Shown: positions 11,625 to 37,818 of the stretch, one piece after another
Position numbering within the stretch: the stretch's first letter is position 1
How the letters are laid out: each line of letters begins with the position of its first letter
NCBI GenBank assembly: GCA_002392405.1
Contig: DGGY01000039.1
Location: forward strand, 1 to 40,605
DNA from: Treponema sp. UBA3862
GTDB lineage: Bacteria > Spirochaetota > Spirochaetia > Treponematales > Treponemataceae
Direction: 5' to 3'
DNA length: 40,605 nucleotides
The notes under the pieces: model-generated
Databases searched by the model: none
Told to the model about the DNA's origin: nothing
Seen by the model: only the letters and a program-made list of their open reading frames with translations
Translations under genes and position numbers: made by a program

Positions 11625-12133
11625 TATTCTCCTGCCATTGAAACAATTTTTGAAAGAAGAGGAAGTTTATTGATTACTTTTGCAATCTTAGAATTGCGGA
11701 TAAAATCAGCCGCATGCTTTCTCCACACAGCTACAAGAGCGCGTCCTGCAAAATAAAGCGGGATATATAAAGCAAGACCGCACAGGAAACTTCCCATAAC
11801 AACAGTATTATTAAACTTTGTAAAAGCCACAAAAGGAATATCAAGCAGCGTGCCGAACACGGGTGCTAACGACGGAATTGTAAGGAATGCATAGCCGATT
11901 CTGTCAAACAGCCCGTCAAAGGCTGGAGAAACTGCAGAACCGATAAGAATCATTACAAGATAAGCAGGTTTATTAATTCTGATAAAGAGAATAAATACCA
12001 TCACAAGATACCACAGAAGATTGTTCTTTGGCATAAGTCCAAGAATTGCACCGCAGGCAAAAGCGTGGGCAATTTCTGCAGGATTAACATTACCGTTAAA
12101 AGCCTGTAAAAGTTTTATTAATTTCTTAAGCAT
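11624..12133 (-). CDS. TIGR03546 / DUF2062-like small membrane protein
   Basis: 169 residues with several hydrophobic segments (AFACGAILGLM, LLWYLVMVFILFI, AYLVMILIGSAV, SFLCGLALYIPLYFAG). The opening 'LLQAFNGNVNPAEIAHAFACGAILGLMPK' region resembles DUF2062 proteins of the TIGR03546 type. It is the first gene of a two-gene unit with the TIGR03545-like protein and overlaps it by one base. The ATG has no Shine-Dalgarno but lies exactly 6 nt after a TAAAAT -10 box, so its mRNA is probably leaderless. The function is not known. Confidence 0.8.
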   Translation of the reverse strand: MLKKLIKLLQAFNGNVNPAEIAHAFACGAILGLMPKNNLLWYLVMVFILFIRINKPAYLVMILIGSAVSPAFDGLFDRIGYAFLTIPSLAPVFGTLLDIPFVAFTKFNNTVVMGSFLCGLALYIPLYFAGRALVAVWRKHAADFIRNSKIAKVINKLPLLSKIVSMAGE

Positions 12134-12139
12134 ATTAAT

Positions 12140-12169
12140 ATTTTACCACATCAAAACAAAATGATACAA
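12140..12169 (-). promoter_or_regulatory. Leaderless promoter of the TIGR03546/TIGR03545 unit
   Basis: On the minus strand, -35 TTGTAT (12169-12164), an 18-nt spacer and -10 TAAAAT (12145-12140), then 6 nt to ATG 12133. The start of transcription would fall on the A of the ATG. It is interleaved with the neuB promoter on the other strand. Confidence 0.6.
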
Positions 12170-12170
12170 T
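12142..12170 (+). promoter_or_regulatory. Putative neuB promoter
   Basis: -35 TTTACC (12142-12147), a 17-nt spacer and -10 TACAAT (12165-12170), with ATG at 12181. No Shine-Dalgarno is present in the few bases after the expected start, so the leader would be absent or about 3 nt. Its -35 overlaps the opposite gene's -10, and its -10 overlaps the opposite -35. Confidence 0.5.
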
Positions 12171-12180
12171 TATTTTAAAA

Positions 12181-13299
12181 ATGAACAGAAAAACAGTTAT
12201 CGTTGCAGAAATAGGTACTTCACATTCAGGAAATTTTGAAAAAGCCGTTAAACTGATGGACACGGCAATCGAAGCGGGCGCAGATGCAGTAAAGTTTCAG
12301 TGGGTCTACGCAGATGAAATTCTTCATCCTGATACGGGGTATGTAAATCTTCCGGGAGGAAAAGTAAGGCTTTATGACCGTTTCAAAGAACTTGAAGTTG
12401 AGCCTGAGTTCTTCAAAAAATGCCTTGACTACGCTCATTCAAAAAACACAGCTTTCATGTGCTCTCCTTTCGGCCTGAAATCCCTTAAAGAACTTCTGGA
12501 AATAAACCCCGATTACATAAAAATCGCAAGCCCTGAACTCAATCACATTCCGCTGCTAAAATCTCTTGCAGACTACCGCAGAAATGTAAAATGCATTCCG
12601 GCAGTTATTTCCAGCGGAGTTTCAAAAATTGAAGATATTGAAAAAGCAGTCAGCATTCTTGGAACACAAAACCTTACCCTGCTTCACTGCATCACCTTCT
12701 ACCCTGCCCCGGAAGAACAGTACAACTTAAAGCTTATAAAAACTCTTTCAGACAGATTCAAAATTGATACAGGGGTCAGCGACCATTCCCTGGATCCTGT
12801 CTTAGTTCCATGCCTTTCTGTAAGTCAGGGAGCGGCAATGATTGAAAAGCACATAACTTTAAGCCGCCTTACTGACGGACTTGATGATCCTGTAGCTTTA
12901 ACGGGGGAACAGTTTGCCCTCATGTGCCATACAGTACACCAGAGCGAAGCAGTTATGCGCCATTACGGGACTGCTCTGGGAGAAAAAGAAATTATACGAC
13001 AACTCTCAGAAGAACACGGACTGGAAAGAATCACTGCCATTCTCGGGGATGGAATAAAAAAACTCGCACCTGCAGAAGAAGCAAATTACGGAAGAACAAA
13101 CAGAAGCCTTCATTATCTTAATTCACTCAAAAAAGGCCACGTAATAAGGGCAGAAGATATTGCAGTTTTAAGGACAGAAAAAGTTCTAACTCCAGGCATT
13201 CATCCGGACTTTTTAGAAAAAGTAACGGGCTTAAAGCTTTCACAGGATGTAACTGGCGGTGACGGCGTACAGAAAGAACACTTTGAGTTTTTTCAATAG
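12181..13299 (+). CDS. neuB: NeuB-family sialic acid (nonulosonate) synthase
   Basis: 372 residues. The family condenses phosphoenolpyruvate with an N-acetylhexosamine-type sugar to make nine-carbon acids (sialic, legionaminic or pseudaminic). The TIM-barrel part begins AEIGTSHSGNFEKA and continues with AGADAVKFQWV, CSPFGLKSL, IKIASPEL and VSDHSLDP. A C-terminal SAF (antifreeze-like) domain is visible from about residue 300 (RSLHYLNSLKKGHVIRAEDI). The catalytic region differs from textbook NeuB (GTSHSG for GINHNG), so the sugar product is uncertain. No CMP-transferase or epimerase gene lies next to it; flagellin glycosylation is a reasonable guess for a spirochete. hisS follows after 37 nt. 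Confidence 0.85.
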   Translation: MNRKTVIVAEIGTSHSGNFEKAVKLMDTAIEAGADAVKFQWVYADEILHPDTGYVNLPGGKVRLYDRFKELEVEPEFFKKCLDYAHSKNTAFMCSPFGLKSLKELLEINPDYIKIASPELNHIPLLKSLADYRRNVKCIPAVISSGVSKIEDIEKAVSILGTQNLTLLHCITFYPAPEEQYNLKLIKTLSDRFKIDTGVSDHSLDPVLVPCLSVSQGAAMIEKHITLSRLTDGLDDPVALTGEQFALMCHTVHQSEAVMRHYGTALGEKEIIRQLSEEHGLERITAILGDGIKKLAPAEEANYGRTNRSLHYLNSLKKGHVIRAEDIAVLRTEKVLTPGIHPDFLEKVTGLKLSQDVTGGDGVQKEHFEFFQ

Positions 13300-13324
13300 T
13301 GTTCCCCAAAAAACATAATTTCGT

Positions 13325-13330
13325 TAAAAT
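13325..13330 (+). promoter_or_regulatory. -10 box of leaderless hisS
   Basis: TAAAAT (13325-13330), then 6 nt, then ATG 13337. No Shine-Dalgarno is present. A -35 at 13302-13307 (TTCCCC, 17-nt spacer) is weak. The spacing matches the other leaderless candidates in this window. Confidence 0.45.
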
Positions 13331-13336
13331 AAAGTT

Positions 13337-14644: not shown

Positions 14645-14656
14645 AAGCCATGCGGA

Positions 14657-14700
14657 GGCAGAAAAACTACTTTAATTCAGAAAGTGCTTTTTCTGCCTTT
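14657..14700 (+). terminator. Probable hisS terminator inside the end of the next gene
   Basis: GGCAGAAAAA (14657-14666) pairs with TTTTTCTGCC (14688-14697), followed by TTTAATTT. The loop is long (21 nt). It lies 12 nt after the hisS stop and overlaps the 3' end of the converging lipoprotein gene. Confidence 0.5.
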
Positions 14701-15023: not shown

Positions 15024-15027
15024 TCTG

Positions 15028-15447: not shown

Positions 15448-15500
15448 TTATGTTCAATTCTCCAGGCTGTATTTATATTAGTGTAATTCTATCTGAAATC

Positions 15501-16022: not shown

Positions 16023-16064
16023 TTTCACTCCTCCGGTTACACTTTTTTTATAAAAACCGTAAAA

Positions 16065-16631: not shown

Positions 16632-16642
16632 AAGAGCACCTT

Positions 16643-17878
16643 TTAATTCATAAATCCGCTTACAAGAGAATCAGTTCTCCACCAGGTAATCTGTGCGTTA
16701 TTATTTTTTATGAAAAGTCCTGAGATAATACCGTTTCCGCTTAAACACATTGAATAATAGAGCATCTCACTGTGATTAATGTTAAGTACACGTTTTAAAA
16801 TTTTCTGACCGTCCGGATGCACCATCTGAACAAGACAGCCTTTATCTACAGGCAGCATGAAAAAGAACCATCCTGAATCAGTAACGCCAAGGAAGTCAAA
16901 GGGAACTGGAAAAACTTCTTTACTTAAGTTTTCACTTATACTGTCTTCAAAAGGAGGAATATCAAGTCCTTCCTCATAAAAACCTGTCTCTGCATCAAGC
17001 GGATAAAGCATTGTTTTTTCGTAATCAATACCGGACTGTACTTTTGTAGCAGGATCAAGATAATTCTGGAAATAATTTACCAGTACATAAAGTTTATGAG
17101 TTTCATTATCAGGAATAACCTTTTCAAGACAGACAAAATAAACATTTTCAGTTTCTGACTGCTCCTTAAGTTTTGGAACAGAGCCGTCATTGAAAGGAAT
17201 TTTATAAAGCAGATAGCCCCTGCTGTTAAACCAGAAAACAACAGGTCCTTCATTCTGTTCACAGACAACTACGAGTTCATCATTTTTTGTTGCATGAACA
17301 GATTTTATAAACGGGAAAGGAGTTCCGCCCGGTCCCTGCTGTCCCAGATAATCAATAAAACGTCCTTCACCGTTAAAGCGCAGTACAATGTAATTCAAAA
17401 GAACTTTATTTTCAGTATCAAACTCCTGTCTTTCAGCCGGGAGGGTATCAACTGCATAAAGTGTTTTTTTAGAATCTACTGTCAAAGGACCGAGTGTATT
17501 AAAAGGATAGGCAATTGCTTTTTTTGTAGAATTCAGGGAATTTTCTGAGGCAAATGAAGGTTTTTTAGTGATTTCTTCATTGTAAAAAAGACTTAAAAGA
17601 TCCCCGTAAGAATTTAATTCCATGATTTTTTTTGACTCGCCGTTGGCAATAAAGAAAAAACCGTCAAGCATGGTCATGTGGGTATTAATACTACCGGTAG
17701 AACTTAAATTAAAGAGATTAAGCTCATCTTCAAAGCTTCCGTAATTTATTGTAAAAAGCTCATTTCCCTTAACGGACGCAACAGTTTTTGAGCGGCTGCA
17801 TGAAACAAAAGAGAAAAAAAGACTCCCGCATAAAAATAAAAGACAGGTTCTCGTAAATATAGAAACATTTTTAATCAT
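16643..17878 (-). CDS. Large lipoprotein, probable beta-propeller (spirochete LIC_12708-like)
   Basis: 411 residues. The signal peptide ends in the lipobox SFVSC (about residue 27), so it should be a lipoprotein. The mature part has repeated short b-strand blocks of the form 'DSKKTLYAVD', 'VLRFNGEGRFIDYLG' and 'FNSRGYLLYKIPF', as in NHL/6-bladed propellers. I recall a spirochete-only lipoprotein family of this architecture (LIC_12708); that assignment is unverified. It heads a minus-strand unit divergent from secA and probably provides a binding or scaffolding function. Confidence 0.7.
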   Translation of the reverse strand: MIKNVSIFTRTCLLFLCGSLFFSFVSCSRSKTVASVKGNELFTINYGSFEDELNLFNLSSTGSINTHMTMLDGFFFIANGESKKIMELNSYGDLLSLFYNEEITKKPSFASENSLNSTKKAIAYPFNTLGPLTVDSKKTLYAVDTLPAERQEFDTENKVLLNYIVLRFNGEGRFIDYLGQQGPGGTPFPFIKSVHATKNDELVVVCEQNEGPVVFWFNSRGYLLYKIPFNDGSVPKLKEQSETENVYFVCLEKVIPDNETHKLYVLVNYFQNYLDPATKVQSGIDYEKTMLYPLDAETGFYEEGLDIPPFEDSISENLSKEVFPVPFDFLGVTDSGWFFFMLPVDKGCLVQMVHPDGQKILKRVLNINHSEMLYYSMCLSGNGIISGLFIKNNNAQITWWRTDSLVSGFMN

Positions 17879-18028
17879 ACCGTTAAAAGAATATTAAATT
17901 GAATTAACCCCGTCAACATAAGTCTAAAAGCAAAGTGCCTTAAGATGCGGCTGTCCGGATATTTTTATGGACTTAAAATTTACACAGTCTGTTTGTTTTT
18001 TACTATTCTTAAGTCTATTTTTTGTGTA

Positions 18029-18041: not shown

Positions 18042-20822
18042 ATGTTAGACAAAATTTTTACCGCCATTTTCGGGTCTCAGAATGACCGTGATGTAAAAAA
18101 ACTTAAGCCCATCGTTGCAGCAGTAAATGCAAAAGAAGAATGGGCAAAATCCCTTTCTGAAGAAGATTTTCCAAAACAGACACAGCTTTTTAAGGAGCGC
18201 CTTGCAAAAGGAGAAACTCTCGACGACATACTTCCGGAAGCCTTTGCTCTCTGCCGTGAAGCCGCTTTCCGTGTACGCGGAGAACGTGCCTATGACGTAC
18301 AGATAATGGGTTCCATCAACCTCCATCTTGGACGTATTACAGAAATGAAGACTGGTGAAGGTAAAACCCTTGTTGCAGTTGCGCCTTCTTACCTTAACTC
18401 CCTCACAGGAAAAGGCGTTCATGTAGTAACCGTAAACGATTACCTGGCAGAACGCGATGCCGCTACCATGCGTCCTGTTTTTGCATATCTTGGCTGTACT
18501 ACAGGTGCAATTCTTTCAAACATGGACAACGAAGCCCGCAAGGCTGCATACAACTGTGATATTACTTACGGAACAAACAATGAACTTGGTTTTGATTACC
18601 TGCGTGACAACATGCAGATTGATTTAAGCCGTAAAGTTCAGCGCGGTTTCAACTACTGTATCGTTGACGAAATTGACTCCATCCTCATCGATGAAGCAAG
18701 AACCCCTCTCATCATTTCAGGCGCAGGTGAAGACGATACTTACAAGTACTACGAAGTCGACAAATATGTCGGAGAATTCGAAGAAGTAGAAAAAGATCCT
18801 GCTATCGATGATTATCCTGATGAAGTAAACATGACTCCTGAAGAGAGGGAAGCTTTAAAAGGTGACTATAAAATCGATGAAAAATCAAAGCGAGTTTCCT
18901 TTACAAACAAAGGTATGCTCCACATTGAAAAGATTCTTCACCAGCATAACCTTATCAGCGCTGATTCAAAACTTCAGGATGAACAGAACTTTGAATACCT
19001 GCACTACTTTACTCAGGCTTTAAGAGCTCACCTTCTCTATCAGAATGATGTTGACTATGTTGTAAAAGACGGTCAGGTTCAGATTGTAGACGAATTTACA
19101 GGCCGTATTCTTGAAGGAAGACGTTACTCAGACGGACTTCATCAGGCAATTGAAGCCAAGGAACATGTAAAAATTGCACAACGTAACCGCACAATGGCTA
19201 CAGTTACCTTCCAGAACTTCTTCCGCATGTACTCAAAACTTTCAGGTATGACAGGTACTGCCCAGACAGAAGCAGTTGAATTTGCAAAAATCTATAAACT
19301 CGATGTAGTAGCAATTCCTACAAACCTTCCTGTTGCAAGAATTGATGAACAGGATGAAGTTTACCTCAACGAAGATGATAAATGGCGTGCAATTGTACGT
19401 GAAATTAAAACAGCCCATGAAAAAGGACAGCCTATTCTTGTCGGAACTGTATCAGTTGAAAAGTCAGAACATCTTTCTGCCCTCCTTACAAGTGCAGGAA
19501 TCCGTCATGAAGTATTAAATGCTAAAAATCATGCCCGCGAAGCTTTAATCATTGCTGAAGCAGGTGCAAAGGGTGCTGTAACAGTTGCTACAAACATGGC
19601 AGGACGCGGTACAGACATCAAGCTCGGCGGAAGCTATGAAGCACGTGCCGTAAAACGCGCAGGCACAAATGCAACACCTCAGCAGCTTAAAGAGGCCGTA
19701 GAAATCGAAAAAGAAAAATGGAAGGCTGACTACGAAGAAGTAAAGGCTTTAGGCGGTCTTTATGTAATCGGTTCTGAACGCCATGAATCACGCCGTATTG
19801 ATAACCAGCTCCGCGGTCGTTCCGGCCGTCAGGGAGATCCTGGACGTTCAAAATTCTTTATTTCAATGGATGATGATTTAATGAGGCTTTTCGGCGGAGA
19901 ACGCATGAAAGGAATCATGACTAAAATCGGCATGAATAATGATGAACCTATTTATCATCCATGGCTTACCAAAGGAATTGAAAACGCCCAGAAGAAGGTT
20001 GAACAGAGAAACTTTGAAATCCGTAAAAACCTCATTGATTATGATGATGTTTTAAATGACCAGAGGGAATTCATTTACGAGCAGAGAGATTCAATCTTAG
20101 CCGACGACAGACTTTCAGAAAGAATCATGAACACTGCAAAAGATTATCTTGACCAGTGGTTTGACGAATACGCATCCAATAAAAAGACAGGACTTTCAAC
20201 ACTGCTCGATGAAATAAGGGAAAATTTTGGAGTTCAGCTTCCGGCTCAGGAAACAACTGAAGAAGCAGTTCTTGCACTTCTCCAGAATGATCTTACTGAG
20301 AAAGAAACACTCGTAGGTCATGAACAGTTCAATATGTTCATCCGTTACCAGTATTTACAGCTTATCGACAAAAAATGGCTCGACCAGCTTGAATATCTTG
20401 ACGGATTAAGGGAAGCAGTTCACCTCCGCTCTTACTCACAGAAAAACCCTCTTACAGAATACAAGATTGACGGTTTCAACGCCTTTGAAGAAATGATTGA
20501 AAACATCCGTCTTACAATCGCAGGACGTGTAATCAAGGTAAGGGTTCAGATAAACGCAGCACCGCAGCCTGTTCAGCGCAATATCAGGATGAATGCACAG
20601 CACTCAGAAAGCCAGTCAATGAGCCAGGCTGCAAATGAAGCAGAACAGAGCAGAAGTTCTTCTGTAAATGCATACCAGAGCCGTCAGGCAGCAGGCCGTG
20701 TAATGGCAAACGGAAGACAGGGTGCGTCAGTTACTGTAAAAAGAACAGTTCCAAAAGTAGGAAGAAACGATCCGTGTCCATGCGGAAGCGGAAAGAAATA
20801 TAAGCAGTGCTGCGGTCGCTGA
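18042..20822 (+). CDS. secA: Preprotein translocase ATPase SecA
   Basis: 926 residues. SecA is the cytoplasmic motor that pushes unfolded proteins through SecYEG. Visible are the start [20 protein letters not shown], Walker [12 protein letters not shown] (about 102-112), the DEAD-type [19 protein letters not shown], the second-domain [14 protein letters not shown] and [10 protein letters not shown], and the C-terminal zinc motif [16 protein letters not shown] 18042 matches the family start; the frame extends 25 codons further upstream, but that part is hydrophobic and unlike SecA. The last codons and the stop lie in the first copy of a 44-bp repeat. Confidence 0.98.
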
Positions 20823-21017: not shown

Positions 21018-22838
21018 TTACTTTCCTGTTAAACCAGGAACTCCGCGTCTTGTTACAGGCCAGAATCTATAGCAGGCAGTACCTAAAATTTTTGAACGGT
21101 TTACATACTGCGGTTCAAGATTTGTGTAATAAGTTACGGAATACGGGTCCAGTTCTGAAAGTGCGGTTAGCCACTGATTATATGAATGTCTCATATCAAG
21201 GGAATTAAAGCGGTTGTCCCCCATCATAAAATAGCAGTTTTCAGGAATGTACTGAGGATTGCCGTTATCATCATTTGCAGGGAAAATCTTCATATTCCTT
21301 AAATCCATAAGCGCAGTATAAAGATTAAGCATATAAGCTGTCTGAAGGTTTTCTTTAATCTTATTATCATTCTGAATGTCAGAAACTGAACTTCCGTTTA
21401 CCAGAAGAAGCGCATCCCTTACAATCAGTTTCCCGATTGTCTGCTTAAACATAAGGTTAAGCTTAAAGCAGGCCTCACTGTATAAATCACCTTCAAAATC
21501 ATGATGAAGATTATCTGTCCACTCTGTCATAAAACTGTTAAACCATCGCTCACCATCTGTACTGCTCAAAAGCATTTTTGCATAACCGTGGTGCATCGAA
21601 AGCATGTAATTTTCCCAGAGATTTTTCTGCTCACTGAGAGAAGTTAAATCACTGTCAGTTCTTTCACCGGTATAACGGTTAAAAGCCGACTTAAAGCGTT
21701 CACTCAAAGTCTTTGCTTCTACCGCAAAAAGAGAAACATCAAATTCATTGCGTTCTTTTTCGCATTCAAGCATCAAATCGTAATTTTCCTGGCTTAAAAC
21801 ATAACTGTCTTTTGTTAAGCCGCGTTTTATTGATTTTTTTACCTCGTTTAAGTTCCATTCAGCCCAGTCACTGTCTTTTGTAACCGCCTGCCATTCATCA
21901 GATGTCCTGGTTCTTGAATAAAGAATACCATCCTGCATCATAAGCTGTTCTCCGGCAACACCTGTCACACGCTTTACAAGAGGATCAGCCTTAGGATTCC
22001 CCCCCTCATCCACATTTAAATTTACAGTAGTCAGGGTACACATGTAGACAAGCTGGCTTATAAAAGTTTTTACTTCACTTTTACGGTCATCTGCATAATG
22101 AGGATTTCTGAAAATTACGATATCTCCCCTCTTGTATTTTTTTAAATAAGGAAGACCTACATCTGAAAGAGGAAATTTAGGTCCGCTTGCACTCTTAAAT
22201 ACAACAACACGATCGCGGATTAAAAATTCAGGGACCATGGATTCAGAAGGAATTTCATAAAGCTGGACAATAAAAATATTTAAAAGAAGAACCATAAAAA
22301 CAGCCTGAACAAGAGCATCAAGCCAGCTTAAAAGTTCCCAGCCGATATGTTTTGGATAAATTTTGAAAGTATTTTTTGCTGAAAGCGGAATTGAAATACA
22401 CCAGCCGCTTTTACCGCGCTCAGAAAATTTATGTGAAGTACAGTATTTTTTCCATTCAGGATCAACTGCTTCAATTCTTTTTGGATTAAGATACCGGAGA
22501 ATCCATAAATCAAGAAAACTTGTAACACACCAGAAAACAACACTCACAAAATCAAGAAAAAATGGAGTACCGTTATTTCCGGATCGCCTTAAAACAAATG
22601 CAATCAAAAGCACATACGGCTTATACTGTAAAAGTTCACGGAAAATGCTGATATAGTTAAGATTATTCTTAATAAAAAGCTCAACATAACCAGATTTATA
22701 AACAAACCAGGTAAAAGCAAGGCAAACCGGTAAAGAAAAAACTGATATATCAAAATTAAATGAAAGATTTAAAACTGCGAAGACAAGTGATGATAAAACC
22801 ACTGCTAAAGATAATGATTTTAATTTATTTTTGTTCAT
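21018..22838 (-). CDS. lepB: Signal peptidase I with a very large internal insertion
   Basis: 606 residues, against roughly 190-320 in most bacteria. It cleaves signal peptides at the outer face of the inner membrane. Several N-terminal hydrophobic segments precede a last one (about 175-195) and the catalytic Ser box PSESMVP (Ser about 200). Then come RGDIVIFRNP, the general-base Lys in DPLVKRVTGVAGE (Lys about 289) and the distal GDNRFNSLDMR box (about 540-546). Between the Lys and GDNR boxes lies an unusual insert of about 230 residues, mostly helical and charged. ATG 22838 is chosen because a perfect extended -10 lies 6 nt upstream; an in-frame ATG at 22865 would be upstream of that promoter. 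Confidence 0.93.
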   Translation of the reverse strand: MNKNKLKSLSLAVVLSSLVFAVLNLSFNFDISVFSLPVCLAFTWFVYKSGYVELFIKNNLNYISIFRELLQYKPYVLLIAFVLRRSGNNGTPFFLDFVSVVFWCVTSFLDLWILRYLNPKRIEAVDPEWKKYCTSHKFSERGKSGWCISIPLSAKNTFKIYPKHIGWELLSWLDALVQAVFMVLLLNIFIVQLYEIPSESMVPEFLIRDRVVVFKSASGPKFPLSDVGLPYLKKYKRGDIVIFRNPHYADDRKSEVKTFISQLVYMCTLTTVNLNVDEGGNPKADPLVKRVTGVAGEQLMMQDGILYSRTRTSDEWQAVTKDSDWAEWNLNEVKKSIKRGLTKDSYVLSQENYDLMLECEKERNEFDVSLFAVEAKTLSERFKSAFNRYTGERTDSDLTSLSEQKNLWENYMLSMHHGYAKMLLSSTDGERWFNSFMTEWTDNLHHDFEGDLYSEACFKLNLMFKQTIGKLIVRDALLLVNGSSVSDIQNDNKIKENLQTAYMLNLYTALMDLRNMKIFPANDDNGNPQYIPENCYFMMGDNRFNSLDMRHSYNQWLTALSELDPYSVTYYTNLEPQYVNRSKILGTACYRFWPVTRRGVPGLTGK

Positions 22839-22844: not shown

Positions 22845-22853
22845 ATTATAGCA
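22845..22853 (-). promoter_or_regulatory. Extended -10 promoter of leaderless lepB
   Basis: On the minus strand TGC-TATAAT (22853-22845), then 6 nt, then ATG 22838. This is a perfect -10 hexamer with an extended TGN element. No convincing -35 is seen. Transcription should start at the ATG itself. Confidence 0.6.
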
Positions 22854-22871
22854 AAAAGGCTTCAAACACTC

Positions 22872-22877
22872 TATACT
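22872..22877 (+). promoter_or_regulatory. -10 box of leaderless fumarase gene
   Basis: TATACT (22872-22877), then 6 nt (atgcct), then ATG 22884. It fixes the start at the second ATG, because the first ATG (22878) would lie before the expected transcription start. It is divergent from, and very close to, the lepB promoter. Confidence 0.5.
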
Positions 22878-22883: not shown

Positions 22884-24557
22884 ATGAGCACTAAATATAC
22901 ATTTAATAAAGACGATTATGATTTTATTCCATTCAATAAAGGAGAAACTTCAGAATTTTCTCCTGACACTAATAAAGACTATAAAATAACAGTATTTGAC
23001 TCAAAAGTCCTGAGTCAGGCTGCATACCTTGCTTTTGAAAGACTATCCTTTACTTTTACAAAGGAACATTTAGAAAATATCATTAAGGCTGCCCTCTCCC
23101 CTGATGCATCAGAAAACGACCGCTACGTCTTAGCCTGTATCTTAAAAAATGCCCAGACATCATCACAAAAAATATTTCCATTATGTCAGGACACAGGAAT
23201 TGCAAATATTTTTGCCTGGAAAAAAGGAAATATTCTCACCAGAAGCAGCAGCGGCACAACTGAAACACAGGAGCTTTCTTCAGGAGCAGCACGGCTGTAT
23301 GATGAAAAAAAACTGAGGTTTTCAACAACCTGCCCGCTTAATTTTTATGATGAAAAAGATCCGAAAAATAACATGCCTGCCCAGGTGACAGTCTTCAGTG
23401 AAGAAAGCTGTCTTGCACCACTTCCTGAGTTTGTAAAAAATGCTCCTTCGTCTTCCTATAATTTTATTTTCTGCGCTAAAGGAGGCGGCTCTTCAAATAA
23501 AACAAGTTTTGTTCAGGGTACTAAAGCAAGCCTTAATAAAGAATCAATTAGAAAATTCCTTAAAGAACAGATTTCACACTTCGGAACAAGTGCCTGCCCG
23601 CCTTACACAATCGCTTTCGTGGCAGGAGGTTTAAGTCCTGAGCAGAACCTTCTGACATTAAAACTTGCAACCTGCGGAGCCTATGACAAAATGACATATG
23701 AGCCAAATCCTTATGGCTTCCGCGACAAAGAGATAGAAGAAGAAATCTTAAAAATTGCTGCAGAAACCGGTTACGGAGCACAGTTTGGAGGAAGCAGATT
23801 CTGTCTTGATGCCGTAGCAGTCCGTCTTCCGCGTCATGGCGCAAGCTGTCCTTTAAGCACAGGCGTAAGCTGTTCAGCGCACAGAAACCTGAAAGTTACT
23901 CTGACAAACGAAGGAATATATCTTGAGAAAACAGTAGAAAATCCTGCAGGGCTCGAGCATTTTGATGAATGCACTAAAATTCTTGATAACTCTTCAAACA
24001 CTGCCGGTCAGATATCCGTTAATACAGAAATTTCAATGGAATCGACCTTAGAGCAGCTTAAAAATGCAAAGGCAGGAGACAGAGTCTTACTTTCAGGGGA
24101 AATTCTTGTTGCAAGGGATGCTGCACATGCCAGATGGAAGAAACTTACTGATGAAGGAAAGGATCTTCCTGAATATACAAAAAAATACCCTGTATGCTAT
24201 GCAGGTCCTGCACGCACACCTGAAGGAAAAATAATCGGTTCGTTCGGACCGACAACTGCAGGAAGAATGGATTCCTATGCAGATCTTTTAATGAGCCGTG
24301 GGGCTGCACTTGTAACACTTGCAAAAGGAAACAGAAGCAGACAGTGGATTGACGCCTGTAAGAAATACAAGGCCTTTTATCTTGGTACACCGGGTGGAAT
24401 TGCAGCTTTTATCGCTTCAAATTACATCATTTCACAAAAAATCATCGATTACGAAGACCTTGGAATGGAAGCAGTACGTCTGGTTGAAGTAAAAAATCTC
24501 CCGTGTTTTGTTATAACTGACAGGACCGGAAAAGATTTCTATGAGGATAAAAAATGA
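22884..24557 (+). CDS. fumA: Class I fumarate hydratase (fused alpha and beta domains)
   Basis: 557 residues. It is an oxygen-sensitive [4Fe-4S] enzyme that interconverts fumarate and malate. The alpha part shows PLCQDTGIANIF, AKGGGSSNKTSF, CPPYTIAFVAGG and the Cys-rich HGASCPLSTGVSCSAHRN. The beta part, from about residue 380, shows AGPARTPEGKIIGSFGPTTA, followed by the R-M-D-S-Y segment, and AKGNRSRQW. Other class I hydro-lyases (tartrate dehydratase) share this fold, so the substrate is not fully certain. The stop overlaps the start of the Hpt gene (ATGA). In an anaerobic treponeme it would serve malate/succinate fermentation. Confidence 0.88.
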   Translation: MSTKYTFNKDDYDFIPFNKGETSEFSPDTNKDYKITVFDSKVLSQAAYLAFERLSFTFTKEHLENIIKAALSPDASENDRYVLACILKNAQTSSQKIFPLCQDTGIANIFAWKKGNILTRSSSGTTETQELSSGAARLYDEKKLRFSTTCPLNFYDEKDPKNNMPAQVTVFSEESCLAPLPEFVKNAPSSSYNFIFCAKGGGSSNKTSFVQGTKASLNKESIRKFLKEQISHFGTSACPPYTIAFVAGGLSPEQNLLTLKLATCGAYDKMTYEPNPYGFRDKEIEEEILKIAAETGYGAQFGGSRFCLDAVAVRLPRHGASCPLSTGVSCSAHRNLKVTLTNEGIYLEKTVENPAGLEHFDECTKILDNSSNTAGQISVNTEISMESTLEQLKNAKAGDRVLLSGEILVARDAAHARWKKLTDEGKDLPEYTKKYPVCYAGPARTPEGKIIGSFGPTTAGRMDSYADLLMSRGAALVTLAKGNRSRQWIDACKKYKAFYLGTPGGIAAFIASNYIISQKIIDYEDLGMEAVRLVEVKNLPCFVITDRTGKDFYEDKK

Positions 24558-28287: not shown

Positions 28288-30975
28288 TTAGAATCCGTAA
28301 TCTGCACTTTTTTTACCGTTTTTTAACGGCTTAAAAACCTGCGTCATAACTTCCATTGCATGACGCACAGGAATAAATTTAATTCCACTCTGAACGATAT
28401 CAGGAATTTCTTCAAGGTCGCGTTCATTTGCTTTTGGAATAAAAATTGTTTTTATGCCGTTTCTTTTGGCTGCAACAGTCTTTTCACGAAGTCCGCCTAT
28501 AGGCATTACAGCACCGGTAAGGTCAAGTTCACCGGTCATCGCAGTATTTTCTTTTATAATTCTGCCTGTAAAAAGTGAAAGGAAAGCGGTTGCCATGGTA
28601 ATACCTGCACTTGGTCCGTCTTTTGGAGTTGCTCCTTCGGGAATATGCAGGTGAACAGCATTTTTATCAAACCATTCACTTTCTTTAATCTGATTTTGAA
28701 TCGCATAGGATTTAGCCCAGTTAAAGGCAATCTGAGAAGACTCTTTCATTACATCGCCCATCTGCCCTGTAAGAATAAGGCCGCCCTTACTGTCAGGATA
28801 AGTAATTGCCTCAATAAGAAGTGTATCGCCTCCCATGCTTGTCCATGCAAGACCAATACAGGTTCCAGGAACTTCTGCCTTTTTTATTATGCTTTCATCA
28901 AAGACCGGTTTTCCAAGATATTTATCAAGATCCCCGGCATCAATTTCATATACGCGGTCTTTAATTTGAAGTGAATCCCCGTTTTCAATTTTGGACACTT
29001 TACTGAGCTTTTTTATATCTGCAGGTATTTTTGTAAGTTCTTCAGTTACTAACTTACGGTGAATTTTATCGATGCATTTTTCATAATTACGCACGCCTGC
29101 TTCTCGTGCATATTCTTCTGCAATTCTGCTCAGTGCTGCTTTGGTATATTTTACCTGATTTTTTTCAAGTCCGTTCTTTTTAAGGTTTTTAGGAATCAGG
29201 TATTTACGTGCAATCTCAAGTTTTTCCTGATCTATATAACCTGAAAGCTGGATTATTTCCGCACGGTCAAGCAGAGGCTCAGGAATTGTATCAAGAGAAT
29301 TTGCAGTAAGAATAAAAAATACATTGCTTACATCAAACGGAAGATCAAGATAATTATCACGGAATGAAACATTTTGTTCAGGATCTAAAACTTCCAGAAG
29401 TGCACTTGCAGGATCTCCCTGTGCGCTGGATCCCATTTTATCAACTTCATCAAGCATGAAGACAGGAGACTTATTCTTAGTGATTTTTAAGCCCTGAAGG
29501 ATTTTTCCAGGCATTGCACCGATATAAGTTCTTCTGTGTCCTTTAATTTCAGCCTCATCACGCATACCGCCGACACTGAAGCGGTAAAAAGGTTTGTTCA
29601 TTGCATCTGCAATGGAGTGTCCTATGGATGTTTTTCCCACACCAGGAGGGCCTGCAAGAATTAAAATTGAACCTTTATTATCTTTTCTTAATTTTCTAAC
29701 GGCAAGATATTCAATAATGCGTTTTTTTACATCATCAAGACCGTAATGATCTCTTTCAAGAACTTTATATGCCTTTGCAAGATCTAATTCTTCAGTTGAG
29801 GTATCATTCCATGGAAGGGCACATAAAAGTTCAAGATAATTTCTGCTTACAAAATATTCTGAAGACTGAGGATCCATCAGCTTAAACTTTTCAAGCTCAT
29901 TCTCTGCTGTTTCCTTTACTTCGCCCTCAAACTTAAATGATTCGATTTTCTCTTTAAACTTAGTGTATTCATTACCTTCGCCGTCAAGCCCTACACCAAG
30001 TTCATCCTGAATTGCTTTCATCTCTTCGCGTAAAAAGTATTCACGCTGATTCTTTTCGATTTTATCGTTAAGCTCATTCTGGATTTTTTTCTGCATACGA
30101 AGAAGTTCCTGTTCTTTTTTAATAAAAACAAGAACCTGCTCAATTCTGGAACGGACATTAAGATTTTCAAGGACTTTCTGCTGTTCGGTCTTATCAACAT
30201 TAAGTATTGAAGCAATAAAATCTGCAATCTTTCCCGGATGATCGATATTAACCATGTTAAGGCGCATTTCTTCAGAAAAGAGAGGATTATTATCGCTGAT
30301 TTCCTTCATTTCACTGATTAAAGCCCTCGTAAGTGCTTTTGTTTCAAAAGTATCATCTTCTTCATCTTCAAGATACTGAACTGCCGCTACTACAGGATTT
30401 TTTGCAGAAAGAGCCTTTCTGACCTTGAAACGCTTTACAGTAGAAACAAAAATATTTATTCCGCCGTCAGGAAGATTGATTTTTTTAATAATTCTGACTG
30501 CAGTTCCAATATCATAAAGGTCATTTACCGTAGGATTTTCAGTTTCATTTTTTGTAAGTACAAGACCTACAAAACCGCCGTTAGACCAGGCTTCTTCAAC
30601 AGTTTTTACGTCGTCAGAATTAGAAAGAATAATCGGAGTGAAAATTCCAGGAAAAATCGGATGTCCATTTAAGCCGATAAGCGGAAGTTTTACAGGCAGC
30701 GTCTGGTCAACAGTAATTATTGACCCGAAAGGAGTATTTTTTTCTTCTTTTTTATTTTCTTTTGCTTTTTTTGAAGAACCAGATTTTTCTTTTTTTCCTT
30801 TCTTCCCGTCGTCTTTGGTTACAACAACTTCAACATCAACAGGAACGTCTTTTCCTTCAATGTGTTTTGAAATTAAATCATCAATTGCATTTTTAATCTG
30901 CTCTGTTACAGACTGCTCATCCTGATTTTCATCTATAATAATCTCATCATCGATATTTTTATCATTTTTAGCCAT
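28288..30975 (-). CDS. lon: ATP-dependent protease Lon (LonA type)
   Basis: 895 residues. Lon is a cytoplasmic AAA+ serine protease that degrades damaged and regulatory proteins. An N-terminal extension of about 90 acidic and Lys-rich residues (GKKGKKEKSGSSKKAKENKK) precedes the substrate-binding domain. The AAA+ module has Walker A GPPGVGKTS and FMLDEVDKMG, and the protease domain has the catalytic Ser in DGPSAG (Ser about 789) and Lys in GLREKTVAAK (Lys about 832). The ATG has no Shine-Dalgarno but a well-formed promoter ends 6 nt before it. It heads the unit lon-rlmI-miaA. Confidence 0.98.
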   Translation of the reverse strand: MAKNDKNIDDEIIIDENQDEQSVTEQIKNAIDDLISKHIEGKDVPVDVEVVVTKDDGKKGKKEKSGSSKKAKENKKEEKNTPFGSIITVDQTLPVKLPLIGLNGHPIFPGIFTPIILSNSDDVKTVEEAWSNGGFVGLVLTKNETENPTVNDLYDIGTAVRIIKKINLPDGGINIFVSTVKRFKVRKALSAKNPVVAAVQYLEDEEDDTFETKALTRALISEMKEISDNNPLFSEEMRLNMVNIDHPGKIADFIASILNVDKTEQQKVLENLNVRSRIEQVLVFIKKEQELLRMQKKIQNELNDKIEKNQREYFLREEMKAIQDELGVGLDGEGNEYTKFKEKIESFKFEGEVKETAENELEKFKLMDPQSSEYFVSRNYLELLCALPWNDTSTEELDLAKAYKVLERDHYGLDDVKKRIIEYLAVRKLRKDNKGSILILAGPPGVGKTSIGHSIADAMNKPFYRFSVGGMRDEAEIKGHRRTYIGAMPGKILQGLKITKNKSPVFMLDEVDKMGSSAQGDPASALLEVLDPEQNVSFRDNYLDLPFDVSNVFFILTANSLDTIPEPLLDRAEIIQLSGYIDQEKLEIARKYLIPKNLKKNGLEKNQVKYTKAALSRIAEEYAREAGVRNYEKCIDKIHRKLVTEELTKIPADIKKLSKVSKIENGDSLQIKDRVYEIDAGDLDKYLGKPVFDESIIKKAEVPGTCIGLAWTSMGGDTLLIEAITYPDSKGGLILTGQMGDVMKESSQIAFNWAKSYAIQNQIKESEWFDKNAVHLHIPEGATPKDGPSAGITMATAFLSLFTGRIIKENTAMTGELDLTGAVMPIGGLREKTVAAKRNGIKTIFIPKANERDLEEIPDIVQSGIKFIPVRHAMEVMTQVFKPLKNGKKSADYGF

Positions 30976-30981: not shown

Positions 30982-31010
30982 AATTTAATGATAAAAACAC
31001 TCGCCGGCAA
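30982..31010 (-). promoter_or_regulatory. Leaderless promoter of lon
   Basis: On the minus strand, -35 TTGCCG (31010-31005), an exact 17-nt spacer, -10 TAAATT (30987-30982), then 6 nt to ATG 30975. No CIRCE or other heat-shock element is seen. Confidence 0.65.
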
Positions 31011-33799: not shown

Positions 33800-33811
33800 A
33801 ATTCAGTTCGC

Positions 33812-34156
33812 CTATGAAAGAACAAGATTTACAGAACCAATGGTAATTTTATCTCCGGGATTAAGTTTTACATATTTATCATTCGGGATTCTTCTGCCAT
33901 TAATAAAAGTTCCGTTCGTAGAGTTTTCATCTTTAATAAAAAAAACATCCTTAATTCTCTGAATTGTTGCATGAACACGGCTTGCAAGTTTATTATCAAC
34001 CACAATGCTGCAGTCACTTGAACGGCCTATAGTCATTTTAGCAACAAGATTGATTTTCTTTTTATTAAACATGAGGTAAGAAACCTGTGCACTGTCAGCA
34101 ATTTTTTCCAGATGCTGTCCAACTGGTGAACTAGTTACTATTGTTGTATCCTGCAT
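33812..34156 (-). CDS. FHA-domain protein (phosphothreonine reader)
   Basis: 114 residues. The FHA domain shows the key residues KMTIGRSSDCSIVVDNKLASRVHATI and, later, NSTNGTFINGRRI, ending LNPGDKITIGSVNLVLS; this fold binds phospho-Thr peptides. The first about 30 residues (MQDTTIVTSSPVGQHLEKI) contain Thr-Thr that could itself be a kinase target, as in other FHA proteins. ATG 34156 is chosen because a full promoter ends 6 nt before it; an upstream extension in frame is a hydrophobic artefact. It heads the FHA-phosphatase-kinase unit. Confidence 0.93.
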   Translation of the reverse strand: MQDTTIVTSSPVGQHLEKIADSAQVSYLMFNKKKINLVAKMTIGRSSDCSIVVDNKLASRVHATIQRIKDVFFIKDENSTNGTFINGRRIPNDKYVKLNPGDKITIGSVNLVLS

Positions 34157-34162
34157 GATTAA

Positions 34163-34191
34163 ATTATACACCCTTAGAAAAAAAATCGCAA
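34163..34191 (-). promoter_or_regulatory. Leaderless promoter of the FHA-phosphatase-kinase unit
   Basis: On the minus strand, -35 TTGCGA (34191-34186), a 17-nt spacer, -10 TATAAT (34168-34163), then 6 nt to ATG 34156. It lies just after the terminator of the preceding gene. Confidence 0.7.
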
Positions 34192-34211
34192 AATCTTCAA
34201 TAAAAATGCGA

Positions 34212-34252
34212 AAAAAAAACAGAAAAAAAACGGCCATCTTTAAAGATGACCG
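34212..34252 (-). terminator. Intrinsic terminator after the secreted acidic protein gene
   Basis: An 11-bp stem with one mismatch (CGGTCATCTTT/AAAGATGGCCG on the minus strand, 34252-34231) is followed by T8 and a second T-run. It separates the protease/lipoprotein unit from the FHA unit. A second small hairpin CCTGAA/TTCAGG lies at 34265-34281. Confidence 0.8.
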
Positions 34253-34290
34253 CTTAATACCTGTCCTGAAAAAAATTCAGGCCGGAACCA

Positions 34291-34917: not shown

Positions 34918-35497
34918 TATTTATCTCCTCGATTCTTGCATTGATTGCACTTTCCCAGGCTGTTCCCTTATAAAGCTTAAGAGCGCCTTTTAATACCATT
35001 TCTTCATATTCAGCAGACTTTTCAATTTTTTCAGCCTTAGAGCCTTCTTCAAATGTATTTGTTGAATAAGCACCAATGTAATAAAGACCAGGCTTTTTAG
35101 GAATTTTAATTACGAGCGGATTAATAGCCCCCTGCATTGAATAATACCAGTTATAAATTGTGGTATAACGTCTGTTTCCAATGTAATAGGAATCTTCTCT
35201 GTAAGCTCTTTCAAGAATATAAGTTGAACCAGGAGCTACAGGTTTTGAAATAAAATTCTGGCTTTCCATAAACTGATAGTCAGGCTCAAAATCAGGATTC
35301 ATCTGAGAGAAACCTTCCATTGCTCCCATAGTATTAAAATTTCCATAGAAAACAACAGAATCTTCTGGTGTTCCTACTGCAGCCTGATACTCTTTTTTAT
35401 GTTTAGTAGAAGTACCTAAAGCTGCTCCCATCGACATACAGCCTGTAAAAAATACAGTGAGTAAAGCTGCAGCCGTTAAAGTTAAAAGTTTTTTCAT
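34901..35497 (-). CDS. Lipoprotein of unknown function
   Basis: 198 residues with a lipobox, LLTVFFTGC (Cys about 20), so anchored in a membrane. The remainder is a mixed b-rich domain (GNFNTMGAMEGFSQMNPDF, RYTTIYNWYYSMQGAINPL). No family is recognised. AAGGAG is a good Shine-Dalgarno. Between it and the protease gene lies a weak hairpin followed by four Ts, which may lower the level of the downstream genes relative to the protease. Confidence 0.82.
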   Translation of the reverse strand: MKKLLTLTAAALLTVFFTGCMSMGAALGTSTKHKKEYQAAVGTPEDSVVFYGNFNTMGAMEGFSQMNPDFEPDYQFMESQNFISKPVAPGSTYILERAYREDSYYIGNRRYTTIYNWYYSMQGAINPLVIKIPKKPGLYYIGAYSTNTFEEGSKAEKIEKSAEYEEMVLKGALKLYKGTAWESAINARIEEINNENKN

Positions 35498-35542
35498 TTG
35501 AACAAACTCCTTAAAAGCACCGCATTTGCAGCGCTGTTTTTT

Positions 35543-37339
35543 TTAGAATGAAATTACTGCGTAAAGTGAAAGAGCGCGGTTCATAAATGAATCAGGATCC
35601 CCGATATCAGAAAGGCTTCTGTCAGTATCCCAGTCCATCCATGGTTTTAAATACAACTGTTTAAAGCCTGCTCCAAAACCAAAATGAACGTCTCCGTCAC
35701 AGTTAAATATAAACTGAGCACCAGCCTCAATTGCATAACCGATAAATACAAAATCGCCGCCGTAAGCCAGATTTCCAACAATCTTAGCATAAGGACTCAC
35801 ACCAAAACTTCCCATTTTTACAGGAACACGGAAGCCGCCGCCCATACCAAATGCAGCAACATCTTCCTCGTGGCCGTAAATATCAACTGATTCAGAATGG
35901 AACATAATGCTTGTTCCCCAGATTCCCCCGCCGTTTTCAAAGAAATCTGCACTTACCCTTATTGCAAGGTCTTTTCCGTTTAAGCTTGATTCTACACCTG
36001 CAGAAAGAACAGTGTTATCCCAGCTGTTAATTTCAGGACTTTCAAAATAAGAAGATGATTCTGATTTTTCAGTCTTTTTATTATTCTTCTTTGAAGATGA
36101 TTTTTTAGATGCATTTTTTGAGTCTTCTTCTTTTGCATCAGAACTGATTTTTTCAATGCGCCATAAACCGTGTTCTTTCTTCCAGGTCAAAGTAAATTTT
36201 GCAGCCTTTTCAGAATCAGAAGTATATTCAACTCCATAAACACCGTCAGTTTCAGAAATACTACCTGCAGAATACTTGGCACCGTCATTTGATTCAGCAC
36301 TGTATTTTTTCCATAACTGATAGGCACAGGCATAGCGGAGACCTTCAGCAGGATCATAACTGAAAGCATCAAGAACAGAGCTGCGTACTTTTGAAGGAGC
36401 AAAATGAAGAACAGAATCAAAATCTTTCTGTCCCTGAGTTGAAGCCCTTTCGTAAGAAATGTATTTTGCAACCGAAGTAAAATTACCGCTTAAATCCATA
36501 AGCACTTCAGCAAGTTTTTTAGAACGTTCCTCAAGCGCTTTTTTAGAATCACTGTCATCAGCCTTTTTCTGAGCCTTATTAATCATAGTAAGAATAACAG
36601 AAGAAGGAATGGCAAAATTAGTTGAATCACGGTAAGTAGCTTTCCAGGTGTTAATACCGGCTACTTCATAACCTGCAGTGCCCTTAGAAGAAGAAATCAT
36701 AAGAGGACCGCCTGAGTTTCCGCCGTCAACCTGAGCCGAATGCTGGATTAAAGGAGAAACAGCAGGATCAAGAAGATCCTTTATACGAGCCCTTGCATTA
36801 GTAACAGTTCCTTTTCCAAGCTGCCATACAGGAGAACTTCCGAGTCCAGGAAATCCAGCCGACCATACTTCCTGACCGTCAGAAACAGCAGAAGAAGAAA
36901 GAGTAAGGCCTTTTTTGAAAGGTTTTTCACCGTCCTTAAAACCTAGAATTGCAATATCAATTTCATCATCAGTTAAAAGAACAGTAAGATTTTCATACTT
37001 TTTCAATTCACCGCTGTCAGCATCCTCAAATTCAATGGAAGCAGAAGCAGCCTGTGAAACTACATGACGGTTCGTGATAACATAGTTAGTTCCGTCAGCA
37101 GCAACATAAACAAAGCCTGAACCAAAAGTTCCTTTAAGATAAGAATCTACATAATTAGCGTATGTAGAACTTCCGTTTTCTTTTAATTCATCACGATAAT
37201 TTTCAAAGTATTTTACATGTTCAGGAAAATACTGCTGGCGTACAACTCCTACATAGTCACGAATCTGAGAGAAGCAGAACGGAGTCAGTAAAAAAAGAAA
37301 AAGCGATGTAAAAAGCTTTCTGATAAAACTCTTGTGCAT
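35543..37339 (-). CDS. Secreted trypsin-like protease with probable C-terminal outer-membrane beta-barrel
   Basis: 598 residues. A signal peptide (about 1-24, TPFCFS) is followed by an S1-type serine protease domain with His92 (TNRHVV), Asp128 (EIDIAIL) and Ser209 (GGNSGGPL) in the right order. A helical stretch follows (about 255-330), then a b-rich domain and a Ser/Lys-rich linker (SKKNNKKTEKSESSS). The last about 160 residues alternate hydrophobic and polar residues in strands with many Gly and aromatic residues and end in a terminal Phe (YAVISF), the signature of outer-membrane b-barrels. No PDZ domain is seen, unlike DegP. GAGGA precedes the ATG. Confidence 0.85.
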   Translation of the reverse strand: MHKSFIRKLFTSLFLFLLTPFCFSQIRDYVGVVRQQYFPEHVKYFENYRDELKENGSSTYANYVDSYLKGTFGSGFVYVAADGTNYVITNRHVVSQAASASIEFEDADSGELKKYENLTVLLTDDEIDIAILGFKDGEKPFKKGLTLSSSAVSDGQEVWSAGFPGLGSSPVWQLGKGTVTNARARIKDLLDPAVSPLIQHSAQVDGGNSGGPLMISSSKGTAGYEVAGINTWKATYRDSTNFAIPSSVILTMINKAQKKADDSDSKKALEERSKKLAEVLMDLSGNFTSVAKYISYERASTQGQKDFDSVLHFAPSKVRSSVLDAFSYDPAEGLRYACAYQLWKKYSAESNDGAKYSAGSISETDGVYGVEYTSDSEKAAKFTLTWKKEHGLWRIEKISSDAKEEDSKNASKKSSSKKNNKKTEKSESSSYFESPEINSWDNTVLSAGVESSLNGKDLAIRVSADFFENGGGIWGTSIMFHSESVDIYGHEEDVAAFGMGGGFRVPVKMGSFGVSPYAKIVGNLAYGGDFVFIGYAIEAGAQFIFNCDGDVHFGFGAGFKQLYLKPWMDWDTDRSLSDIGDPDSFMNRALSLYAVISF

Positions 37340-37436
37340 AAAAAATCCTCACTACAATTTTTTGTTATATTATCAAATTTACAGAAAGTATTCAAATCAA
37401 ATCTATGAATATTGAGATTTATCAGGATGCATAAGG

Positions 37437-37769
37437 CTATTTTACGTAACAACTTTTATGCAGGGCACATCGGGGATTAAAAAAAGATGAACACTTTCTG
37501 CATTTTACAAGGCTGCTGTACTCATCATAAGAATACAAGGTGCCGCAGACACCGCACATTACGCTGTCATTTTCATTACTGTCAACCGGGGAAAAAGCGT
37601 GACTCTCAGCCATATCATGACACTTATAGCAGGAATAAAACTTTCCGCATTTACCGCATCTGTTTGCAATAATATCAAGTTTTGAAGCGTAATGAATGCA
37701 CCGCCCCTCATCATCAGTGATGAAACCATAAATATCTCTTGATGTCTTTCCCGCTTTCAAAGCATTCAT
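37437..37769 (-). CDS. CHY-type zinc-finger protein
   Basis: 110 residues. The order of Cys/His pairs fits the CHY zinc finger: GRCIHY, CGKCGKFYSCYKCHDMAESH, CGVCGTLYSYDEY, CRKCSSFFNPRCALH. Such proteins bind several zinc ions; relatives include mitochondrial Hot13 and ubiquitin-ligase finger domains, but bacterial members have no known function. ATG 37769 is chosen; an upstream ATG at 37814 is poor. Before it lie TGC-TATTCT and a 7-nt T-run, a leaderless-type layout. Confidence 0.78.
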   Translation of the reverse strand: MNALKAGKTSRDIYGFITDDEGRCIHYASKLDIIANRCGKCGKFYSCYKCHDMAESHAFSPVDSNENDSVMCGVCGTLYSYDEYSSLVKCRKCSSFFNPRCALHKSCYVK

Positions 37770-37818
37770 AAAAAAAAGAATAGCACATATCTCTTTTTTT
37801 TTGCAGCAGGTCACTTCA

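What the first reader, a model, noticed from the sequence alone, without database searches (positions are those of the whole stretch)
12131..37785. Widespread leaderless transcription: -10 boxes sit exactly 6-7 nt before the ATG of unit-heading genes
Seen directly: TAAAAT-N6-ATG (TIGR03546 gene, 12133), TAAAAT-N6-ATG (hisS), TATTAT-N7-ATG (secA), TGCTATAAT-N6-ATG (lepB), TATACT-N6-ATG (fumarase), TTGCCG-N17-TAAATT-N6-ATG (lon), TTGCGA-N17-TATAAT-N6-ATG (FHA gene), and less clearly the CHY gene and neuB. None has a Shine-Dalgarno. Operon-internal genes (yebC, rlmI, the 34917 and 35497 lipoprotein genes, the 16022 gene, the FAD subunit) do. With the normal 7-nt step from -10 to +1, transcription would begin on the A of the ATG. 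That so many independent genes share this spacing is unlikely by chance. Essential genes (secA, hisS, lepB) use it, which would make leaderless initiation a main route in this organism, as reported in actinobacteria and Deinococcus but, to my knowledge, not as a headline feature of treponemes.
Basis: partly seen in the sequence, partly recalled or inferred. Interest (0 to 1): 0.75.

Follow-up and report, generated by a model that had tools for sequence, protein, structure and literature searches.

The report
Leaderless genes in a gut Treponema
In this gut treponeme a sizeable minority of genes that head transcription units, several of them essential, have their promoter placed so that the messenger RNA should begin at or within about three bases of the start codon, a way of starting known from other bacteria but little described in treponemes.

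Summary
For secA, relatives share TATATT-N9 rather than TATTAT-N7. One more gene was missed: LIC_12708, TTGACG-N17-TATTCT-N9. neuB has a longer spacer; the CHY gene stays unresolved.

It is not chance. In the own-genome sample 40 of 279 unit-heading genes carry a strong -10 at -12 to -15, against 13.9 in control windows and 9.8 in shuffles; operon-internal genes are near background. TTG lies exactly 17 bp further upstream in 29 of 92 such genes. A model trained only on leadered promoters spikes at the same offsets. The placement is kept in 29 of 32 hisS and 25 of 28 lepB loci of the family, against 1 of 24 hisS loci outside.

It is a secondary route: net 9-14% of unit heads, 5-9% of genes in three congeneric samples. 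Leptospira dRNA-seq and a 2011 survey already showed the kind in spirochaetes. No RNA 5' ends were available.

The parts
11624..12133 (-). TIGR03546/DUF2062 gene, leaderless by promoter geometry
12140..12145 (-). -10 TAAAAT, N6 to ATG, TGG before it; -35 TTGTAT at 12164-12169, spacer 18
   Evidence: N6/N7 kept in L126 and L075
12165..12170 (+). neuB -10 TACAAT, N10 to ATG at 12181 (leader about 4 nt); overlaps the -35 of the divergent TIGR03546 gene
   Evidence: N8 in L126
13337..14644 (+). hisS (histidine--tRNA ligase)
   Evidence: TIGR00442
13325..13330 (+). hisS -10 TAAAAT, N6 to ATG; weak -35 TTCCCC 13302-13307
   Evidence: placement kept in 29 of 32 Treponemataceae loci
16643..17878 (-).
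   Evidence: NF047780
17888..17916 (-). LIC_12708 promoter: -35 TTGACG (17911-17916), N17, -10 TATTCT (17888-17893), N9 to ATG (N6 in L073)
18042..20822 (+). secA, start at 18042
   Evidence: NF009538/TIGR00963; start shared within the window's clade
21018..22838 (-). lepB (signal peptidase I)
   Evidence: TIGR02227
22845..22853 (-). lepB extended -10 TGCTATAAT, N6 to ATG; weak -35 TAGAGT 22868-22873
   Evidence: 25 of 28 usable family loci; TGn in 20 of 25
22849..22877 (+). Fumarase promoter: weak -35 TAGCAA 22849-22854, N17, -10 TATACT 22872-22877, N6 to ATG at 22884; interlocked with the lepB promoter
22884..24557 (+). Class I fumarate hydratase, start at the second ATG
28288..30975 (-). 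lon
   Evidence: TIGR00763
30982..31010 (-). lon promoter: -35 TTGCCG 31005-31010, N17, -10 TAAATT 30982-30987, N6 to ATG
33812..34156 (-). FHA-domain gene, start 34156
   Evidence: FHA families, below their cut-offs
34163..34191 (-). FHA promoter: -35 TTGCGA 34186-34191, N17, -10 TATAAT 34163-34168, N6 to ATG
   Evidence: score 13.8
37777..37782 (-). CHY zinc-finger gene -10-like TATTCT after TGTGC, N7 to ATG at 37769; no -35; unresolved
   Evidence: PF05495

Best explanation
These are ordinary sigma-70-type promoters (-35 TTGNNN, 17-bp spacer, -10 TATAAT-like; at lepB an extended TGn -10) placed so that +1 falls on the A of the ATG (N6) or 1-3 nt before it (N7-N9). RNA polymerase should therefore make messages with no leader or almost none, which ribosomes must start on from a 5'-terminal AUG without a Shine-Dalgarno contact, presumably by the 70S/IF2-favoured route known for leaderless mRNA (recalled, not tested). 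It is a common secondary mode: about one in five heads with a recognisable promoter, beside a majority of SD-led genes. It is conserved at particular genes (hisS, lepB) across most Treponemataceae genera read, and alternates with SD-led initiation at others (secA, lon). Shown here: promoter identity by sequence, placement, statistics, conservation. Inferred: the actual 5' ends and the mode of translation.
For: Strong -10 at -12 to -15 in unit heads: own genome 40/279 (shuffles mean 9.8, max 19), congeners 35/189 (7.1, max 13) and 17/100 (3.3, max 9); operon-internal genes 5/163, 1/72 and 2/35; E. coli 0/105; the Deinococcus deserti plasmid used as positive control, TANNNT at -12/-13 in 12/95 against 1.2. 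TTG at exactly 17 bp in 29 of 92 pooled TA-led heads, 0-7 at each other spacer of 8-31. A matrix trained on 55 leadered promoters spikes at offsets 12-15: best promoter there in 60 of 277 promoter-bearing genus heads, 24 of 127 in three other genera, 5 of 22 in G070, 0 of 36 in G089 and 0 of 19 in E. coli. The excess remains without TAA/TAG hexamers (hits 28 vs 10.1, 23 vs 6.5, 15 vs 2.9), so it is no stop-codon artefact. Almost nothing at offsets 8-11 in the three congeneric samples: 1 against 10.2 expected from offsets 30-130. hisS 29/32 family loci, in 13 of the 15 genera read, against 1/24 outside; lepB 25/28, in 11 of 12 genera (genera). hisS keeps TTG at 17 bp in 22 of 29, lepB keeps TGn in 20 of 25. 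TA-led starts are ATG in 90 of 92 against 434 of 476 (Fisher P 0.03).
Against: No RNA data. In G020 the plain hexamer test shows no excess (7/91, control 6.3, shuffles 4.1), although the matrix does. Start calls come from my own gene finder, not benchmarked; it missed the true hisS start and the CHY gene. secA and hisS have poor -35 matches in the window, and at secA a site 26 nt upstream scores better (6.1 against 2.0). lon lies 40 nt behind a co-directional gene, so a longer read-through message is possible. SD depletion is not independent evidence (3/102 at internal ATGs with the hexamer). In 2 of 32 hisS loci neither signal was seen, and L158 looks SD-led, its start being uncertain.
Confidence: 0.86

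Rival explanations
1. Chance: in a 38-40% GC genome TA-rich hexamers are common and the reader picked the matches.
For: TANNNT is frequent: control mean 21.7 of 279 heads per two offsets in the own genome. The window taken alone is only mildly richer than its genome (P 0.06-0.15).
Against: Shuffle maximum 19 against 40 observed; TTG-17 spike; independent matrix; conservation across genera.
Confidence: 0.02
2. Real promoters, but the true start codon lies further downstream, so the messages have normal leaders.
For: It happens: at fumarase the first ATG abuts the -10 and the second is the start.
Against: The ATG at N6-N9 is the position shared by orthologues: offset 0 in 30 of 32 hisS loci, and the secA start is shared within the window's clade. 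A systematic artefact would not give a sharp edge at offset 12.
Confidence: 0.04
3. The genes are leaderless from the near promoter but also have other promoters or read-through, so leadered messages carry most of the translation.
For: lon sits 40 nt behind a co-directional gene; in the window secA a better-scoring site lies 26 nt upstream (6.1 against 2.0).
Against: The near promoter is conserved in place across genera at hisS and lepB, which suggests that it is used; no strong SD is seen before the lon or secA start.
Confidence: 0.15
4. The AT-rich hexamer is a translation signal (S1 binding or unstructured start region) and not a promoter.
For: Nakagawa 2017 notes that AT-rich bias at -20 to -10 can also reflect S1 sites (passages).
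Against: A TTG element at exactly 17 bp and exact hexamer placement fit a promoter, not S1; operon-internal genes are near background.
Confidence: 0.03

Closest known systems
Leaderless mRNAs of Leptospira interrogans (PMC5243855, passages read)
   Same: Spirochaete; primary 5' ends at or within 10 nt of many start codons (184 identical to the start at 30 C).
   Different: Mapped by dRNA-seq there; beyond sigma-54 sites no promoter motif was identified there, whereas here the -10/-35 is clear.
TA-led genes of Zheng et al. 2011 (PMC3160421, passages and one table row read)
   Same: TANNNT about 12 bp upstream of the start, above dinucleotide shuffles; Spirochaetes listed with 6 of 18 genomes, mean 3.9% (1.8-6.9%).
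   Different: The word Treponema does not occur in its held main text; the net shares here, 5.2-9.0% of genes (another method), lie within or above that range; conservation of single treponeme genes was not seen in the passages.
-10 region adjacent to ORFs in Deinococcus-Thermus (PMC12340547, passages read)
   Same: Same architecture: -10 a few bases before the ORF, strengthened by a -35 at a fitting distance.
   Different: About 30% of ORFs on average there; lower here. Its domain-wide figure may include spirochaetes; I could not see it.
Leaderless transcriptomes of mycobacteria (PMC3898074, PMC4633059: search listing only)
   Same: Leaderless transcripts common, by their titles and abstract starts.
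   Different: Another phylum, high GC (recalled), mapped by RNA sequencing.

Membership tests
TA-led leaderless genes (Zheng 2011) | TANNNT about 12 bp upstream of the start, above dinucleotide shuffles | tested here: met
   strong TANNNT forms at 12-15 in 40/279, 35/189 and 17/100 heads, each above the maximum of 200 shuffles
TA-led leaderless genes (Zheng 2011) | No Shine-Dalgarno before the start | tested here: inconclusive
   6/92 against 276/476, but the hexamer itself blocks the SD window (3/102 at internal ATGs)
Leaderless mRNA | 5' end at or within a few nt of the start codon | not testable with these tools
   no RNA data held
Sigma-70-type promoter | -35 hexamer about 17 bp upstream of the -10 | tested here: met
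   TTG at spacer 17 in 29/92; hisS 22/29
Leaderless-rich genomes (Actinobacteria and Deinococcus-Thermus, over 20% of genes in Zheng 2011) | More than a fifth of all genes leaderless | tested here: not met
   net 5.2, 8.8 and 9.0% of genes, strict hexamers only, so a low estimate

The most novel reading that the evidence does not exclude
Treponemataceae keep an ancient, selected class of leaderless essential genes (hisS in 13 of 15 and lepB in 11 of 12 genera read, with secA and lon in parts of the family and murC and rsgA in this genome) that is translated as a group by ribosomes starting on 5'-terminal AUGs, so that the supply of such ribosomes or of IF2 sets aminoacylation and secretion together when SD-led translation falls.
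Probability: 0.12. Interest if true: 0.7.

Novelty: new member of a known kind. Interest (0 to 1): 0.45.

Why it matters
It would put a major family of host-associated spirochaetes on the list of bacteria with a sizeable leaderless fraction, give start-site rules for annotating their genes (gene finders that lean on an SD may misplace such starts; not tested here), and give ready promoter models (TTG-N17-TATAAT-N6-ATG; TGnTATAAT-N6-ATG). The gene-by-gene conservation (hisS, lepB) and the leaderless/SD alternation at secA make it possible to ask what keeps a gene leaderless. It is not a new mechanism.

Tried and rejected
Codon-usage gene finder: too conservative, replaced by a 3-periodic Markov model. 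First footprint tally dropped loci lying on the minus strand; redone with both strands. An earlier hisS tally (30 family loci, 18 with SD) mixed orthologues with paralogues: one search shows 7 named loci at 71-79% identity and 22 at 32-35%; the 7 all show a -10 before the ATG by eye and the rest were set aside. TatD itself has its best-scoring promoter site 45 nt upstream and looks leadered. I first guessed that the 17878 gene was a PPIase; it is LIC_12708 family. Stop codons at in-frame -12 as the cause of the peak: rejected. SD absence as independent proof: rejected. A search for CHY and FHA homologues in held loci found none. Function enrichment of the leaderless set was not tested; 10 window proteins and 10 of the 33 own-genome LL genes were named. 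Gene calls were not compared with the annotated E. coli or D. deserti starts; all controls use my own calls.
Full report
WHAT WAS CLAIMED.

THE ORGANISM. The window is one contig (C33) of a 1.59-Mb, 65.5%-complete assembly. Its SecA pairs with Treponema berlinense (88% identity, starred branch) among unnamed rumen and gut Treponema MAGs.

CHECK OF THE BOXES. Corrections: fumarase fits only with the second ATG (22884), which the 4 orthologous loci found support. secA has two overlapping hexamers; a strong hexamer at offset 15 (here TATATT-N9) is present in 27 of the 32 leaderless-like rows, so a leader of about 3 nt is likelier than none. A further gene, LIC_12708 (17878, -), has TTGACG-N17-TATTCT-N9-ATG and N6 in relative L073. 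neuB has TACAAT-N10. The CHY zinc-finger gene has TGTGC-TATTCT-N7 without a -35 and no homologue in the held loci.

STATISTICS. Genes were called de novo (3-periodic Markov model; starts chosen from coding score and start codon only, blind to upstream signals, except in the refinement). A unit head is a divergent gene or one with a same-strand gap of at least 40 nt or at least 20 nt. Strong -10 means TATAAT with at most one change, keeping TA and the final T. At offsets 12-15, heads (mean of control windows; mean and max of 200 shuffles): own genome 40/279 (13.9; 9.8, 19); G001 35/189 (9.1; 7.1, 13); G050 17/100 (3.9; 3.3, 9). Other genera of the family: G020 7/91 (6.3; 4.1, 10: no excess), G034 7/97 (3.8; 1.9, 6), G023 8/88 (3.5; 2.4, 7). 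Same class G070 4/80 (1.8; 0.9, 4). Same phylum G089 0/77 (3.5; 1.7, 6). E. coli 0/105 (2.0; 1.5, 7). D. deserti plasmid 3/95 (0.5; 0.1, 2), and TANNNT at 12-13 12/95 against 1.2. Operon-internal genes are near background, though in small samples G050 (2/35 vs 0.6) and G034 (2/42 vs 0.8) are a little above (all).

INDEPENDENT PROMOTER TESTS. Among 92 TA-led heads of 568 pooled from three congeneric genomes, TTG stands at spacer 17 in 29 and in 0-7 at each other spacer from 8 to 31; 3,052 equal hexamers inside genes show no such peak. A matrix trained on 55 promoters lying 20-120 nt upstream, none of them leaderless, spikes at offsets 12-15 in the genus and in G020 and G034, weakly in G023 and G070, not in G089 or E. 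coli; the D. deserti plasmid, whose promoters differ, gave no hits there either. In the congeneric samples almost none falls at 8-11 (1 against 10.2; Poisson 4e-4). Its best site gives a 0-3 nt leader in 60 of 277 genus heads with a promoter and in 24 of 127 in three other genera; no site reached the threshold in 291 of 568 and 149 of 276 heads. With start refinement and decoy offsets: G000 33/325 (decoys 6-11), G001 38/207 (8-11), G050 20/106 (3-6), G020 17/104 (3-7), G034 16/103 (1-5), G023 9/94 (1-3), G070 8/91 (1-3), G089 1/85 (3-10), E. coli 0/112 (0-5). Net excess of heads: 9.4% (95% 5.4-13.5), 13.7% (8.2-19.8) and 13.1% (5.5-20.8); 5.2, 8.8 and 9.0% of all genes. These are low estimates, as weaker boxes such as the one at lon are not counted.

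CONSERVATION. hisS: TANNNT at 12-15 in 29 of 32 Treponemataceae loci, in 13 of the 15 genera they cover; 2 had neither signal and one, from a 1.1-Mb genome, looks SD-led with an uncertain start. Outside the family 1 of 24 usable loci of 25 has it, in a row whose start I doubt, and 17 of 24 have an SD tetramer. In hisS TTG stands at 17 bp in 22 of 29. lepB: 25 of 28 usable loci of 29, in 11 of 12 genera, with an extended TGn -10 in 20 of 25. lon is mixed: 7 of 27 usable of 29 by TANNNT, 16 of 27 by SD tetramer (one row has both), some of the latter overlapping a TTGAC-N17-GATATT-N6 arrangement by eye, 5 with neither. secA: of 64 rows labelled (window, 60 other Spirochaetota, 3 Clostridia), 32 leaderless-like, 28 SD, 4 other. 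On a quick SecA tree the two states need at least 6 changes; 29 of 31 rows in the group holding the window (support 84, not starred) are leaderless-like, while the T. bryantii rows and their kin are mostly SD-led with the -10 further up. The anti-SD end of 16S is intact in the 16 of 60 family genomes where the pattern was found, including two congeners; it was not found in the other 44, the own draft assembly among them, which I ascribe to missing or variant rRNA ends without having checked. The two modes thus coexist.

MECHANISM. Shown by sequence: sigma-70-type promoters at a fixed distance from ATG, kept across genera. Inferred: +1 at or within 3 nt of the ATG, and initiation on a 5'-terminal AUG. 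Two divergent pairs (12133/12181 and 22838/22884) have interlocked promoters, the -10 of one overlapping the (weak) -35 of the other, so RNA polymerase should serve one direction at a time (inference).

WHAT IS KNOWN. L. interrogans has many leaderless mRNAs by dRNA-seq (PMC5243855, passages). Zheng 2011 predicted them in 6 of 18 Spirochaetes at 3.9% on average, range 1.8-6.9% (PMC3160421, table row). Nakagawa 2017 gives six Spirochaetes a negative mean on the component that could mark leaderless genes (PMC5397173, passages). A 2025 T. pallidum transcriptome and a Borrelia map were opened at passages only; the Borrelia text does not contain the word leaderless and the T. pallidum one is not among the papers holding leaderless and Treponema. 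Searches for leaderless with Treponema, spirochete, spirochaet and Treponema denticola listed no paper whose title or start of abstract reports leaderless transcription in a treponeme; subscription papers are not held, so this is no proof of absence.

VERDICT. A real, conserved, ordinary-mechanism feature. A secondary rather than main route; a new member of a known kind.

Noticed in passing
window 12140-12170 and 22845-22877: Two divergent gene pairs have interlocked promoters: the -10 of each overlaps the (weak) -35 of the other on the opposite strand, with 47 and 45 bp between starts. The lepB/fumarase arrangement recurs in L073, L074 and L126. In three congeneric samples the leaderless class held 5 of 12 divergent genes with a 30-59 bp gap, against 1 of 4 (<30), 2 of 20 (60-99), 26 of 94 (100-199) and 17 of 102 (200 or more); small numbers.
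   Followed up: partly
   Followed up: yes
secA upstream, L072-L147: Orthologous secA genes alternate between leaderless-like and SD-led starts within Treponema, at least 6 changes on a quick SecA tree.
   Followed up: partly
window 40005-40605 (-): 5S rRNA and the 3' end of a 23S rRNA at the contig edge; no tRNA found in the window.
   Followed up: no
L158: In the 1.1-Mb single-contig family member (G025) hisS looks SD-led (GAGG 9 nt before the first ATG of the frame), unlike most of the family; its start is uncertain.
   Followed up: no
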